Of a stretch of 64,000 nucleotides of DNA, positions 10,075 through 16,578 are shown one piece after another. The notes beneath the pieces were generated by a model. It did not search any database and was not told the origin of the DNA. It saw nothing but the letters and a program-made list of their open reading frames with translations. The stretch is from Cladophialophora immunda (lineage: Eukaryota > Ascomycota > Eurotiomycetes > Chaetothyriales > Herpotrichiellaceae): NCBI RefSeq assembly GCF_000835495.1, contig NW_015622544.1, positions 577,704 to 641,703 on the forward strand. The letters run 5' to 3'. A program made the translations under genes and the position numbers. Numbering within the stretch: position 1 is the stretch's first letter; every line of letters starts with the position of its first letter.

Positions 10075-10129
<55 letters not shown>

Positions 10130-10563
10130 GGAGTACATATGTAGGCACCTTGACCAAGAGAGGTGAAAATTGGAGCTGAGTACTCGATACGCGGTATACG
10201 AGGCACGCCATCCTGTGTGGGAGACTCGTTTGCCTCTATGGCCCCCCTTCTGCATTTCTTATTGAGGATCAGTGCAGTGTTGTGACGCGGGAAAGGCCGA
10301 CTTGGGGCGGCGTGGCGACTTTATGCACAACCCCAGCACACCGAACTGAAATCCGCTGTTGCTCAGCCGCTGATTCTCCGTTGACCTCCTCGGTCAGGAA
10401 AGTGGCAATGACATTGAACTGATATTCAAGGGAAAAAAAGGGGGGTGGTTTAAATGAAGAATTCATATTCATCATCGTCAGACATCTTCCATCTCCCAGC
10501 CCGCATTCACAGCATGATCTCCCTCCACAGTCCCATGCTTTCGGCGTTTTGGATGCGCAAGAC
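9392..10563. other. Intergenic region between convergent genes, 1.2 kb
   Basis: It should hold both 3' ends. It contains a long CT microsatellite and a TACGGAGTA word directly after it (10127-10135). I see no gene. Confidence 0.5.
10078..10127. repeat. (CT)25 microsatellite
   Basis: Fifty uninterrupted bases of CT dinucleotide, flanked by GGGG on the left and ACGGAGTAC on the right. Such a perfect run is likely length-variable between strains. Confidence 0.95.
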
Positions 10564-10904
10564 CTAGTCCAGAAAGATCAACTCCCCGTCATTGTTGCTG
10601 ATGCGCTCGTCAAGCCGGACCCAAGCCCTGTTCCATCTCCCGTCGCCCGTGCCCAGCTCGGCTTCGAGAATCCTGCCATTCTCTATTAACCTGACATTCC
10701 GCGCGCTGGCGCCGAAGTTGCCGCCGCGATGCCACGCGAAGTGTCCGTGCGAGTTGGTGAGGCAGTTGTTCAGTGAGATGGAGGAGAGCTTGTGCTCGCC
10801 GTGCACGTTGGTGCAGGAGGCGATGAGGTCGTAGTCCCTGTCCAAGGTGATGCTGTTGGCCGAGGCGGAGAAGTTGCCGCGCATCGGATGGGCCGCGTCG
10901 TGCC

Positions 10905-10937
<33 letters not shown>

Positions 10938-11748
10938 TTTGATGCTGGTGCATCCCGTACGCGGCTGTGCCTGCCACACCCACACCCGCGGCCGCCAAGC
11001 CGTATTTCTTCTTTTTCTTCTTCTCGTCGTCCGAGGAACTGCTGCTCGAGGAGGACGAGCTGGACGAGGAAGAATCTCGACGAAGCCCCGCTGGGCGCTG
11101 GAGCTTCTTCTTCTCCTTCTTGTGCTTCTTGAGCGCGTCCTCCGCCATGGAGCCGGCTATGGCGCCTCCTACCGCACCGAGAAAGCCATGGTGCACTTTA
11201 TGGCCGCCGTAGGCTCCTAGTGCGCCTCCAGCTACGGCGCCCATGAGGCCGCGATCCTGAGAGGTTGGGTCATTGGGGTCAAGAGGCGCACCGGGTTGCG
11301 GAGGGTAAGCTCCCCCCATGTGAGATGGTGGCGGGCCCGGTGGTGGCGTGAAAGTCTCATATTGGCTTTGGGCAGGAGGGGGATGAGGCGAGTAGCCACG
11401 GTGAGCCTGATCGCCGTAACCATAGTCAGGGGGCTGAGAGGGGTAATTGGATTGAGGATAAGAATGGTCGGGTGGCGGGGAAGTATATTGATTTGACTGA
11501 TGGGTATATTGTTCATCTGGGGCTTGATAACCTCCATGATGACCGTAGGGCTGCTGGTAGTCTTGGGGTGGCGGAGATGCATAGTCATATGGTCTATTCT
11601 GATCATAGCCTTGATTGTAGGACTGGTCACCGTAGCCGTGAGGGGGCCCAGATGGAGGTTGCCATTGCTGATAGCCTTGTTCCCCGGTGTTGCTGTAGCC
11701 GTGCTGCTCAGGAGGGTATTGAGTGTTGTAGTAGTCTTGACCCGACAT
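10564..11748 (-). CDS. CVNH lectin-domain protein with glycine-zipper segment
   Basis: An intronless 394-aa frame from ATG 11748. Residues 1-160 are a Tyr/Gln/Pro/Gly-rich, prion-like tract. Residues about 166-205 are a Gly/Ala-rich double helix (GLMGAVAGGALGAYGG, then FLGAVGGAIAGSM) resembling the glycine-zipper 2TM domain. A Lys-rich stretch, a run of Ser with Asp, and a run of 10 Gln follow. The last ~108 residues match the cyanovirin-N homology fold: GNFSASANSITLDRDYDL, a Cys in each half (SCTN and NNCL), and GNFGASARNVRL with NGRILEAEL. CVNH domains bind high-mannose glycans. There is no signal peptide, so the target is unclear. The domain order is known in fungi, but its role is not established. 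Confidence 0.88.
10906..10935. repeat. (CTG)10 trinucleotide repeat coding for polyglutamine
   Basis: Ten perfect CTG units on the + strand read as ten CAG (Gln) codons in the CVNH gene. Pure codon use suggests recent slippage. Confidence 0.9.
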
Positions 11749-12383
11749 CGTGTTCAGGTCGGCAATCCTCCGGCGGCGTCAAGTCGTCTATTCTTTGATC
11801 CCTCAAGGCTGTAGGTGCGCCGAATGAAGGTGGTTGAGGTCAATCTGAGACGTTTCTGCGCTCGAGGACCCGGATACTTATAGACGATCGGATAGAAGTT
11901 AGGGACAATACGAGTCGCAGAGGTATGCAGGAGCAGGCAGCCTTGTTTGATGGCAGCTGAAGCCGGCTGGTGGCCTGATGGATGGATGGAGAAGAGAAGC
12001 AGTTCGGTTAGAATTAATATCGTGGCTGGAGACGGCGACACAGCCACAGAAGGTGATAGAGATTCGCACAGCCATTGGGTAATGTGGAGGTCAACGGCCA
12101 CACGCACAGCCACACAGCCACACCAAGCTCAAACTAAAGGGGAACGGACCACCAGCTTGAAGCAGCTAAGCAACAATGACAAAGTCTACGAGGATATCAG
12201 CAAGTCCGCGAGACACCTGCCGGCATCATGAGTAGCGTCGTACTCGTATACAGCATCGAATCCTGCGCCGCCCACTGTCCGAGGAAGAATGCCCGATGCA
12301 CCATTGAAGCTCCTGTTTGAGCTTGTTGCAGGCTCTGAGGGTGCGGATGGCTCCAATTCACTTGATAGCGACTGGCAAGATGC
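11749..12383. other. Intergenic region, 635 bp
   Basis: It lies upstream of the CVNH gene and downstream of the OsmC-family gene. It has no supported open frame. Confidence 0.5.
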
Positions 12384-13055
12384 TCAGTTCACCTTGAGTA
12401 CAGCTTCATTGGGCGGAATGTCGGACATGCCTTCCCCCTTGCCTTGATTGACAGTCTCGTCCTCGTCCTTTCGTGCATCAGGGACCACGTTGCCGACGTG
12501 CCCCAGTTGGGTGTCGACATTGACACCTCCCTTTAACGTTTGTAGAACCACACAATACCTCTCACTCAGCTCGATCAGTTTGTTCACCTTTGACTTGTGC
12601 TCCTCGTCGACATCGAGCCGCACAATCAGTCTAATCTTTGTGAATCCGACTGGTGCAGGATTTCCCTCGGGATCTTTGATGCCCATTGTACCGCGAAAGT
12701 CGAGATCCCCTTCTACTGTGATTGTTCCATTGTTGATCGGAATCCCCAGACTCGTGGCCACTGCGCGAACGGTGACACCAAAGCACGCCACCAACGATTC
12801 GAGCAGCATGTCTCCCGAGCACAATTCACCCGATGCATCAAACCCTTCTCCACCTGCGGCTCGATGTAGACCAGCCACTTTCCGCGCCGCTGTGCTCGTC
12901 GAGAGCGAACATGTTAGGCTCGTTGAGGTAGGGTCAAGAGTGCCGCTGGAGGATAAAGTAACCAGAGCGGAGGAAGGGTCGGATCGGTATTTGTCTTTCA
13001 GGGGCTTCTGTTTCGAGCGGAGAGTCTCTGCTGCTCTAGTTGCAGCGTCGGACAT
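12384..13055 (-). CDS. OsmC/Ohr-family protein
   Basis: An intronless 223-aa frame from ATG 13055. OsmC/Ohr proteins reduce organic hydroperoxides with a pair of cysteines. Here GELCSGDMLLESLVACFGVT (Cys79 and Cys91) carries the helix with the first reactive cysteine, and ELSERYCVV (Cys168) the second. The central strand ITVEGDLDFRGTMGI (from about 111) is also typical. The N-terminal ~35 residues are charged and lack a clear targeting signal. Part of this gene (residues about 110-149 and, separately, a piece near residues 51-67) is duplicated in scrambled form 0.5 kb upstream at 13570-13718. Family assignment is firm. Which cysteine pair is catalytic, and the physiological substrate, are inferred. 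Confidence 0.88.
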   Translation of the reverse strand: MSDAATRAAETLRSKQKPLKDKYRSDPSSALVTLSSSGTLDPTSTSLTCSLSTSTAARKVAGLHRAAGGEGFDASGELCSGDMLLESLVACFGVTVRAVATSLGIPINNGTITVEGDLDFRGTMGIKDPEGNPAPVGFTKIRLIVRLDVDEEHKSKVNKLIELSERYCVVLQTLKGGVNVDTQLGHVGNVVPDARKDEDETVNQGKGEGMSDIPPNEAVLKVN

Positions 13056-15216
13056 GGTGAGAGTGGAAGCGAGCGGAGGGACGGACGCAGATATCGAGGC
13101 TCCACCTTTTCGCCGTGGAGAGGTTGTTGTCGCCGTCGAGAATTTCGCAAACAGTCACTAATGAGGCTGTCAGTGCTGCCACAGAGCCCAGAGAATACAG
13201 TCCGAGCAGAGAGACGACAATGCCACAAGAAATGGACTCCAAACTGCGGCGTTTGAGCGGTTCAGCAAAATGAATCGGGTGTAATATTTGCTCTCTTTAC
13301 CCCTCATCCGACAATAGTGGAGGCTCTGAAGCTTCCATCAGACCGTCAGGAGGACGCGCCAATGCAGTGGTTTGTCATTGAGTGAACCCCATCCCGTTCA
13401 AGACACACAGCGACCTTTTCCGAGATGTGATATTTTTGACGCTGAATTGGTCAACGTGATCTCCGTGGCACCGAAATGAACAGATGGAAAGGAGCTATTG
13501 ACCAAGTTCGGTGCTGGTGCGTGGCTGAGTGAAGGCGAGGGGGTCTCTTATCATCACGTGCTGATAAAGATCACAGTAGAAGGGGATCTCGACTTTCGCG
13601 GTACAATGGGCATCAAAGATCCCGAGGGAAATCCTGCACCAGTCGGATTCACAAAGATTCGACTGATTGTGCGGCTCGATGTAGACCAGCCACTTTCCGC
13701 GCCGCTGTGCTCGTCGAGGTAGGGTTTTTCACTCCCGTACAGGTACACAGTAACTTTTACAGCTAGGTTCGGTCGAGATATTCGTTGTCACAAGTCGAAC
13801 CTTACCTCCCTACCACGGAGAGGAACCCATTGGCCCCTGACTAGACCTCGACACAGCCGAGGGGATCGATCAGGCACTCACTTGCTACTGTCTCTCATAT
13901 CTCTCGCAGCGACTTGACGTCATGTCCGTGGTCGGTCCAGTGGTCGGCATCGACAGAGCGAAGAGACACCCGCATCTCGACACTGTTTCCATGGCAAAAT
14001 CGACGTCGTCTCCGGAATTGCAATGCGAGTGCTGAGGGCGCCCCTCATCCTTCCGATCCTCCTCCACACAAATCCGAGCGATGTCATCAAACTTCTTCTC
14101 TACGAAGCAAGCACTATTGGCTGATGGATAGAAAAATGAAAGGGCTCGCCGCTAGAAACAGCAGTGAACCCATCATCATCGTACCAAGCTGACAGGGTAT
14201 AGACTACGACGGTAATCAACACTGGGTGCAAAGGACTGGGGTTTCGGCACTGCAATACGAGAACATCTCCCAACGCCTGTGATCGCCCAAGCGGCAGAGC
14301 ATTCGGGGCACCATCAACACGAGGAACCGAGAGAGAACCCCCCCTCACCGCATTTGTCCCATCAAGTCAATCTCTGCCTTTATTGGTGTTTGTCCGTTCG
14401 ATTGCCATCAGCGATCAAATTCACCCATCCTCCGCCCCCGCAGGCTAATGAGACCTCCGAAGCTCGTCCACAGACACTGCGCCGATCCCCTCCATGTCCA
14501 TATGGTCTTGGCATTCCTCCGCCCTTTGCGATGGATCGGCTGGGCATGAGATGACGTCTGGGAGGCCCAATCGAACCTCATCTTGCGCTGCGCTTGGTCT
14601 GTTTGAGTGCGAACATCCATCTCCACTCCGCGCAGGAATGCCATTGCCACTGACGTCGATCTGCATCATCAGCGATCGGTTCAAACGGTGTCCTTTCTCC
14701 TTGCTGGGATTTCCATGCGCATTTCGCAATTGCTATGATGAAGCTGACCACGACTGTTAGCCCTTGCTCCCCGCGCCAGAGGAGGTGCCCCGAGCAGCGA
14801 GCCACCAACTACCCAGCGCCGAGAAGATGCCAGGGAGACATCTTACCAATAGCCGTAGCGTGAATAGAAAAACGGGGGGGCTTCCCGCGCATGAGATGGT
14901 GGACCTACACCCCTGCAGCGCGAGGTAGTACCCCGTCAAGCCCATTTTTGCGACTTTTTCTATCGGCTACTACATGCTAGGTTTCCGGACCACAATAGTG
15001 AGCTTGTCATCTGATGGGCACATTCGGCCTTAAGAGCGCATTCAGAGGTAGGTGATACGAAGCCGACAAGTGACTGAAGTCATATATAGGAGATCAAAGA
15101 TTTCGCGGTTCCATCAGGAACCCTCCCTGAATCCCCTCCCCTTAGCCTTTCATCCCCATATGCTCCTACAGCCTCATCCTAGACAAAACGCGCAAGCCTG
15201 AAACCTCTGTTCCACC
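13056..15216. other. Intergenic region, 2.2 kb, containing a gene fragment
   Basis: It lies between the divergent OsmC and aquaglyceroporin genes. Apart from the chimeric OsmC fragment at 13570-13718 and a CACGTG at 13555-13560, I see no gene. The last ~100 bases before 15217 are pyrimidine-rich, as in a 5' leader. Confidence 0.5.
13570..13718 (+). pseudogene. Chimeric, scrambled partial copy of the OsmC-family gene
   Basis: Bases 13570-13682 equal the reverse complement of 12610-12722 (113 bp, one mismatch at 13660, which is a synonymous Arg codon change). Bases 13670-13718 equal 12855-12903 in direct orientation (49 bp, no mismatch). The two parts overlap in a shared 13-nt word, TGCGGCTCGATGT, at 13670-13682. 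The first part keeps the OsmC reading frame on the + strand (ITVEGDLDFRGTMGI onward), but the joined piece has no complete domain and stops at 13720-13722. It is a non-functional copy, probably recent. Confidence 0.9.
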
Positions 15217-16578
15217 ATGGATCATCTTGAAAAACAAAAAGAACATCCCTTCCACATCCCCCACACGCGCGCTCCCGGCTCCTCATCCTCGGAACCGGCC
15301 TCGGACGAAGTTACGTTTGCTCACCGCGAACACGACCAGGAGCAAAATGCGCGGAGCATGGACCCGAACCCAGACGCGCCCTACCCGTACCACCAGGAGC
15401 ACGGTCCGCCCATCGACAACGCCCTGAAGTATACCGAGGCCGAGGAAGATTACCAGCACCATAAGAACCTGTTGTGGAGCCGCATCAGACACCATCTGAG
15501 AGACCCCTTCGCCGAGTTCATGGGCACTTTCATCATGATTCTGTTTGGGGACGGGAGCGTCGCCCAGGTCACGTTGAGTGCGAATCCCAAGTTGCCCCAA
15601 AGCAGTCAGAACAAGGGCGAGTATCAGTCTATTTCCTGGGGGTGAGTGGTTTGCCTTTGTCTCATTCCCTCTTGCTTCCAAATCCGTCACTGTCTACCTT
15701 TCTGGGACCTCGTTGGCGCCACCTTCGTGTCAAAAAAAGCCCGCAACTCTCTCAACGAGGTGGCAGATTTGCTGATCTTTTCGGTCGAACAGATGGGGTA
15801 TCGGCGTCATGCTGGGCGTCTACGTCGCAGGCTGTGCAGGAGGCCATTTAAATCCCGCAATCACATGGGTCAACTGCCTGTATCGCAAGTTTCCCTGGTA
15901 TAAGTTCCCGATATACGCTGCAGCACAGGTGCTAGGGTGTTTTTGCGGCGCGGCCGTCATCTACGGCAACTACAAGTCCGCGATCGATGCGTATGAAGGT
16001 GGCGCTTCGATCCGCACCGTCCCAGGTTTCTCGGACCATGCCACTGCGGGCGTCTTCTGCACCTACCCGCAGCCATTCCTGACAAAGACGGGTCAGGTAT
16101 TTTCCGAGATCATCTCGAGCTCGGTGCTGGTATTCGTCATCTTTGCCTTGAAAGACGATGCGAACTTGGGAGCGGGCATTATGGTTCCCTTGGGGTTGTT
16201 CTTCTTGATCTTTGGCATTGGGGCCACGCTGGGTTGGGAGACCGGCTATGCCATTAACCTGGCTCGAGACTTTGGGCCCAGATTGTTCACCTATTTTGTA
16301 GGCTATGGGCATGAAGTGTGGAGCGCGGGAGGGTACTATTTCTGGGTATATCCTTCTATTTCAGGCATGTCCGGGCAGAACACTGACAAGGAAATTTCCA
16401 GGTTCCGATGATCTGCCCCTTCATTGGATGCACCTTCGGCGGCTTCTTGTACGACACCCTGATTTACACGGGCGAGTCCCCAATGAATACTCCCTGGATG
16501 GGTATCAAGCGTCTTGTCCACCCATCGCGCAAGGGAGTTATGGAAGCCATTACTGGCAAGCCAGCGAAGGAAGTTTGA
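15217..16578 (+). CDS. Aquaglyceroporin (MIP family, Fps1/GlpF-like)
   Basis: Three exons (15217-15641, 15793-16345, 16402-16578) give 384 aa; both introns have GT...AG ends and the joins restore SWGWGIGVMLG and YYFWVPMICPF. A channel for glycerol and other small solutes in the plasma membrane. The first selectivity box is GGHLNPAITW; the second reads NLARDFGPR, with Leu in place of the usual Pro, as in yeast Fps1 (NPS/NLA). Six hydrophobic segments are visible, from FAEFMGTFIMILFGDGSV to the FIGCTFGGFLYDTLI helix. The ~100-residue N-terminus is His/Pro/Glu-rich and cytosolic, and could regulate gating. The C-terminal tail is basic. Family is certain; the transported solute is inferred. Confidence 0.92.

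What the first reader, a model, noticed from the sequence alone, without database searches (positions are those of the whole stretch)
13570..13718. Scrambled, recent partial copy of the neighbouring OsmC gene joined at a 13-nt microhomology
Two pieces of the gene at 12384-13055 that lie about 133 bp apart are fused here, the first inverted (12610-12722) and the second direct (12855-12903). At the join both sources share TGCGGCTCGATGT. A possible third switch follows at GAGGTAGGGT (13716-13725), which also occurs at 12925-12934. One synonymous mismatch in 113 bp means the event is young. This pattern fits replication template switching, not plain tandem duplication or retroposition. The antisense orientation could also produce transcripts complementary to the OsmC mRNA.
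Basis: seen in the sequence. Interest (0 to 1): 0.75.

Follow-up and report, generated by a model that had tools for sequence, protein, structure and literature searches.

The report
Scrambled gene fragment pasted upstream
In a black fungus, a short mosaic of two or three pieces of a stress-protein gene, one of them flipped, sits about 500 bases upstream of that gene; it looks like a recent copying error during DNA repair or replication, of a kind already described in yeast, and there is no sign so far that it does anything.

Summary
Window 13570-13682 is the reverse complement of 12722-12610 (112 of 113 bases; the difference is synonymous), and 13670-13718 is a direct copy of 12855-12903 (49 of 49). 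Their 13-base join comes from an 18/20 inverted repeat inside the OsmC gene; 0 of 300 codon shuffles had one. A third switch, a 24-base skip, is also supported. The chimera occurs once in the 42.2 Mb genome. It shares Ala134 with this gene, which 0 of 16 aligned relatives have, so it is young and was copied from this gene.

Best explanation: OsmC DNA folded back or switched strands at its inverted repeat, was copied onward, and was joined into a break or stalled fork upstream, two bases from the window's only near-perfect loopless 20-base palindrome. Yeast has such 'distant inverted insertions' (PMC11724301). Replication switching and break repair cannot be separated here. No reads and no relatives' DNA were available, so assembly and empty site are unchecked. 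A regulatory role is possible but unsupported. New member of a known kind; modest interest.

The parts
12384..13055 (-). OsmC-family gene (223 aa), source of the pieces
   Evidence: Pfam PF02566, E 3e-19; only full-length match in the own-genome search; 93% identical to a Fonsecaea multimorphosa protein
12610..12722 (+). source of piece A (copied inverted)
12855..12903 (+). source of piece B (copied direct)
12603..12622 (+). left arm of the source inverted repeat used at the join (18 of 20)
12855..12874 (-). right arm of the source inverted repeat
12918..12934 (+). source of the short third piece, reached by a 24-nt skip at CTCGTYGAG
13548..13567 (.). near-perfect loopless palindrome TTATCATCACGTGCTGATAA (18 of 20 bases), ending two bases before the left edge of the insert
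   Evidence: only such 20-mer in the window, 1 of 6 sites in 264 kb; one other place in the genome, on C1, within 2 mismatches
13570..13682 (+). piece A: inverted copy of 12722-12610
   Evidence: 112 of 113 identical
13670..13682 (+). 13-nt join TGCGGCTCGATGT shared by both sources
13670..13718 (+). piece B: direct copy of 12855-12903
   Evidence: 49 of 49 identical
13719..13725 (+). piece C: GTAGGGT, continuing as 12928-12934; likely right end of the insert

Best explanation
A single mutational event pasted a mosaic of about 156 bp (13570-13725), copied from the OsmC gene, into the region upstream of that gene. Shown: the order and orientation of the pieces, the inverted repeat at the A/B join, the direct repeat at the B/C skip, and descent from this gene after it gained Ala134. 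Inferred: a single strand of OsmC DNA, or a nascent strand on it, folded back or switched strands at the 20-nt inverted repeat whose arms lie 232 nt apart, was copied on across it, skipped 24 nt at CTCGTYGAG, and the product was joined into a break or stalled fork at 13569/13570, beside a 20-nt palindrome. This statement covers both break repair and fork switching. The insert is most likely functionless.
For: Pieces and identities. Source inverted repeat of 18/20; 0 of 300 codon shuffles had one. Third switch, 0 hits in 2000 random draws. Chimera found once in the genome; each flank matched only itself at E 0.001. Ala134 shared by gene and copy while 16 of 16 aligned relatives have Val. The only loopless 20-mer palindrome of its quality in 64 kb ends two bases from the left edge. 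Yeast precedent, sections read (PMC11724301): insertions of two fragments from one locus in inverted orientation were 15 of 23 complex insertions in rad27-delta, 14 of 18 in rtt105-delta, 3 of 3 in rfa1-t33 and 9 of 144 in Dna2-deficient cells; internal microhomology median 6 (2-11).
Against: No empty site from a relative and no reads, so target-site changes, outer microhomology and assembly quality are unchecked. The gap between the inverted arms (232 nt) and the join (13 nt) exceed the ranges in the yeast paper (2-20 or 30-119 nt; 2-11 nt). The palindrome argument is post hoc. With loops of up to 8 nt allowed, comparable 10-bp-arm hairpins form 50 clusters in 264 kb, so proximity is then only a roughly 1.5% coincidence; no perfect hairpin with arms of 7 or more and a loop of up to 12 lies at either edge; 61-nt single strands at the edges do not fold unusually well (z -0.66 and -1.57 left, 0.27 and 0.87 right).
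Confidence: 0.8

Rival explanations
1. Pure replication-fork template switching (FoSTeS or MMBIR type), one of the two routes inside the best explanation: a fork stalled at the palindrome, the nascent strand jumped about 850 bp into OsmC, turned at the inverted repeat, slipped once and jumped back, with no double-strand break.
For: Same anatomy as the best explanation; palindrome beside the left edge; entry, two internal switches and exit within about 1.1 kb.
Against: Nothing here separates it from break repair. The source match stops at once at both outer edges, which leans slightly towards end joining, but the empty site is unknown.
Confidence: 0.35
2. Two steps: an OsmC allele with its inverted-repeat spacer inverted existed for a time, and a piece of it was duplicated upstream.
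For: The A/B join is what inversion of 12623-12854 between the arms would give (follows coordinates); spacer inversion between inverted-repeat arms is documented in yeast coding genes (PMC8604942, abstract and passages).
Against: Needs an allele not seen and an additional event; the spacer is 232 nt and coding, whereas the 10 yeast inversions are described as 2 to 5 bp in the passage seen.
Confidence: 0.07
3. Assembly or library artefact.
For: No reads available; the fetched stretch C4:377704-577703 holds 100 N (none are in the window), which may be a scaffold gap or a withheld stretch.
Against: No N in the window; the copy differs from its source by one base; internal joins fall on repeats; one placement only.
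Confidence: 0.07
4. The insert, however made, acts: minus-strand transcripts through it and OsmC form a roughly 113-120 bp hairpin that feeds RNA interference and tunes OsmC, a beginning hairpin-RNA gene. Compatible with the best explanation of origin.
For: Arms of 120 nt at 98%; the genome holds Piwi (4 matches), RdRP (7 matches, some of them pieces of one gene) and Dicer-dimer (3 matches) domains, all above the curated cut-offs.
Against: No expression data, an 847-nt loop, no Rfam match at gathering threshold in 12300-15300, and constraint could not be tested without relatives' DNA.
Confidence: 0.04

Closest known systems
Distant inverted templated insertions at DNA breaks in Saccharomyces cerevisiae (Yu et al. 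2024, PMC11724301; abstract and three sections read)
   Same: Two pieces from one locus in inverted orientation joined at a longer internal microhomology and inserted elsewhere while the source stays intact; pieces of 113 and 49 nt against paper medians of 50 (rad27-delta) and 150 bp (rtt105-delta).
   Different: Here natural and carried in an assembled genome, donor only about 850 bp from the target, inverted repeat longer (13 exact, 18/20) and arms farther apart (232 nt), plus a third slip; no break is demonstrated.
Template switching between inverted-repeat arms in yeast genes (Abraham and Hazkani-Covo 2021, PMC8604942; abstract and passages seen)
   Same: Switch at a short inverted repeat inside a coding gene.
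   Different: There the outcome is arm homogenisation or spacer inversion in place; here the gene keeps its order and the product sits upstream.
Short-range template switch mutations in great apes, and hairpin birth by template switching (PMC7954356, PMC8794818; outlines with abstracts seen)
   Same: Creates local reverse-complement copies.
   Different: Those are inferred against aligned relatives or ancestors; no related DNA was available here. Here the inverted copy lies 847 nt from its source and is fused to a direct piece.
FoSTeS / MMBIR rearrangements (FoSTeS recalled; MMBIR discussed in PMC11724301)
   Same: Serial switches at microhomology.
   Different: Usually described at larger scale (recalled); the replication origin is not testable here.
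Inverted-duplication origin of plant microRNA genes (PMC3237417, abstract seen)
   Same: Inverted copy of part of a gene.
   Different: No transcript shown, no compact hairpin, and a fungus.

Membership tests
Distant inverted templated insertion | Two fragments of one locus, opposite orientations, adjacent in the insert | tested here: met
Distant inverted templated insertion | Microhomology between the two fragments | tested here: met
   13 nt exact, 18 of 20 over the arms; paper range 2-11
Distant inverted templated insertion | Gap between inverted microhomologies within the reported ranges (2-20 or 30-119 nt) | tested here: not met
   232 nt; a range observed in two yeast mutants, not a definition
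Distant inverted templated insertion | Outer joins with 0-4 bp microhomology | tested here: inconclusive
   source match stops at 13570 and 13725; no empty site to compare
Distant inverted templated insertion | Arises at a double-strand break | not testable with these tools
   historical event
In-place inverted-repeat template switch (arm homogenisation or spacer inversion) | Source locus itself altered | tested here: not met
   gene open and colinear with 16 relatives' proteins
Transposon or MITE-borne fragment | Further copies of the element or its ends in the genome | tested here: not met
   insert found once beside its sources, each flank only once (the search skips very common words); target-site duplication not tested for want of the empty site
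Tandem duplication | Whole insert colinear with and adjacent to its source | tested here: not met
   piece A inverted, 847 nt away
Processed retrocopy | Colinear mRNA order with a poly(A) tail | tested here: not met
   order is inverted then direct; no A-run follows the insert, five T do; the gene is one open frame of 223 aa, so intron loss says nothing
Inverted-duplication small-RNA gene | Expressed hairpin processed to small RNAs | not testable with these tools
   no RNA data; RNAi domains present

The most novel reading that the evidence does not exclude
A newborn hairpin-RNA gene caught at its origin: one template-switching event placed an inverted copy of OsmC coding sequence upstream of OsmC, and a 5'-extended transcript now folds on itself and silences OsmC through the RNA-interference machinery whose domains this genome has.
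Probability: 0.03. Interest if true: 0.6.

Novelty: new member of a known kind. Interest (0 to 1): 0.27.

Why it matters
It is a clean natural footprint, in a filamentous black fungus, of a mutation class that the closest paper studied at induced breaks in yeast. Both internal joins can be read, the donor is next door and intact, and a private residue places the event after the split from the aligned relatives. One case is not surprising, but it suggests that comparing genomes within this fungal group could give a natural spectrum of such insertions, and whether they seed antisense or hairpin transcripts.

Tried and rejected
Chance similarity: rejected. Transposon capture: rejected, chimera and flanks each found once. 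Tandem duplication and retroposition: rejected on order and orientation. A coding role for the plus-strand frame 13498-13722 (74 aa): a protein search gave 1 protein, a 103-aa OsmC piece covering 54% of the query, which is the copied part; the minus-strand frame 13554-13748 gave none; the plus-strand frame is open largely because the source frame is. These searches see only relatives sharing short exact words. Known RNA family in 12300-15300: none at gathering threshold. Palindrome as a repeated regulatory element: apart from itself on both strands, one place on contig C1 within 2 mismatches; any reading of its parts as GATA-type sites or an E-box is recalled, from no call. Unusual single-strand folding at the edges: not found. 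tRNA genes in the window: none. Relatives' DNA: states that this genome has no relatives held; the prokaryote, virus, phage, plasmid and E. coli collections were not searched because the host is a fungus, and metagenome scans were capped at 0.

Literature: searches were seen as listings with starts of abstracts; outlines with abstracts of PMC8604942, PMC8794818, PMC7954356, PMC11724301, PMC9684475 and PMC3237417; passages of PMC8604942; three sections of PMC11724301. I noticed no title in the five papers each that names a natural case in a filamentous fungus; this is weak evidence of absence.

Full report
Setting. The window is C4:577704-641703 of a 42.2 Mb genome in 39 contigs. No name is given. 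Among the 120 listed protein hits, OsmC is closest to proteins of Fonsecaea multimorphosa (93%), Cladophialophora bantiana, F. pedrosoi and C. psammophila (91% each), so this is a black fungus of that group (inference). OsmC lies on the minus strand at 12384-13055 (PF02566). A plus-strand frame at 15809-16411 has the major-intrinsic-protein (aquaporin) domain; the frame at 15217-15645 is probably its first part (inference). The finding lies between these genes, 515 bp upstream of the OsmC start codon.

Observation. Piece A, 13570-13682, is 12722-12610 reversed and complemented, 112 of 113 bases. Piece B, 13670-13718, is 12855-12903 direct, 49 of 49. They share the 13 bases 13670-13682. In the source, the shared stretch is part of an inverted repeat with arms 12603-12622 and 12855-12874, 18 of 20 complementary, 232 nt apart. 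It is a rare feature: 0 of 300 codon-order shuffles of the gene had an inverted repeat as good. After B, seven further bases (13719-13725) continue the source at 12928-12934, a 24-nt skip between two near-identical 9-mers; none of 2000 random draws of a 7-mer from the same 264 kb gave such a 17-mer match in the gene. The 7-mer alone would be met somewhere in the gene about 8% of the time (estimate), so the support comes from its place after the direct repeat. Three pieces and two internal switches are thus supported, and the insert spans about 13570-13725.

How unusual it is locally. The own-genome search with 13540-13740 found three places: the chimera and its two sources. A self-comparison of 264 kb (20 fetched stretches to the left plus the window) in overlapping 12-kb tiles found only these two repeat pairs at 28 nt or more, 85% or more and E 1e-3, with the low-complexity filter on.

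Direction and age. The gene is open, the only full-length OsmC match in the genome, the second match being the insert, and colinear with 16 relatives chosen from the 120 listed. The residues encoded by the 24 nt skipped in the copy are present in 15 of those 16; one (P0101) lacks three residues there and none lacks eight, so the skip is derived in the copy. Gene and copy share Ala134; 16 of 16 relatives have Val. The copy therefore came from this lineage's gene after that change. One difference in the 149 positions 13570-13718 agrees with a young event; I give no date, because no calibrated rate was used. The one difference is synonymous (AGA in the gene, CGA in the copy).

Where it landed. 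The source match begins at 13570. Two bases to the left ends TTATCATCACGTGCTGATAA (13548-13567), the only 20-mer in the window with 18 or more of 20 self-complementary bases. In 264 kb there are six such sites (eight hits, three of them overlapping), and elsewhere in the genome one place on C1 comes within 2 mismatches. Such a site within about ten bases of an edge by chance is of the order of 0.2% (80 positions against one site per 44 kb), but the comparison was made after seeing it. With loops of up to 8 nt allowed, 10-bp-arm hairpins with at most one mismatch form 50 clusters in 264 kb, and the same figure becomes about 1.5%. No perfect hairpin with arms of 7 or more was found at either edge, and 61-nt strands there do not fold unusually well (z -0.66, -1.57, 0.27, 0.87). 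The palindrome is a plausible, unproven cause of a stalled fork or break.

Mechanism. The join between an inverted and a direct piece, sitting on an inverted repeat of the source, is what fold-back or strand-switch copying predicts: a strand copying leftwards through 12722-12610 turns at the arm and continues rightwards from 12868. Yeast work describes the same kind of product. Among complex insertions at an induced break, two fragments of one locus in inverted orientation made up 15 of 23 in rad27-delta, 14 of 18 in rtt105-delta, 3 of 3 in rfa1-t33 and 9 of 144 in Dna2-deficient cells; the internal microhomology was longer (median 6, range 2-11) than the outer one (median 2, range 0-4), and the authors propose microhomology-mediated switching followed by capture at the break (PMC11724301, sections read). 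Our case has a longer join and a wider gap than their ranges. Spacer inversion between inverted-repeat arms in yeast genes (PMC8604942, abstract and passages) is a similar switch with an in-place outcome. Break repair and fork switching cannot be separated without the empty site; the fork-only rival is given 0.35 inside the 0.8 of the joint explanation.

Function. OsmC is read from the minus strand. A plus-strand transcript through the insert would carry piece A in sense and only piece B in antisense. A minus-strand transcript running through the insert and OsmC could pair over 120 nt with an 847-nt loop. The genome has Piwi, RdRP and Dicer-dimer domains above the curated cut-offs (4, 7 and 3 matches), so such RNA could be processed, but nothing shows that it is made. 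The small frames over the insert gave no independent relatives, and no Rfam family matches.

Verdict. It is best filed with templated insertions made by microhomology-guided switching: a new member of a known kind, modestly interesting as a clean natural example. Read support and the empty site in relatives remain the two decisive checks.

Noticed in passing
window 10564-11748 (-): A 394-aa frame with a CVNH (cyanovirin-N-like) domain, a weak glycine-zipper match and long Q and S runs.
   Followed up: no
window about 10085-10132: A dinucleotide run, seen as RERERE or SLSLSL in several overlapping frames (position estimated from the frames).
   Followed up: no
own genome C4:577574-577595, about 130 bases left of the window: A run of C followed directly by a run of G, a perfect 20-nt palindrome; the fetched stretch C4:377704-577703 also holds 100 N, position not looked up.
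   Followed up: no
own genome C6:2347786-2349374: RdRP-domain match in two neighbouring pieces, one with an in-frame TAA, in a genome with several other RdRP matches; may be an intron or a decayed copy.
   Followed up: no
window 12855-12874: Arg65, whose codon lies in the right arm of the source inverted repeat, is shared by 4 of 16 aligned relatives, the closest four, so the repeat itself may be limited to this group.
   Followed up: partly
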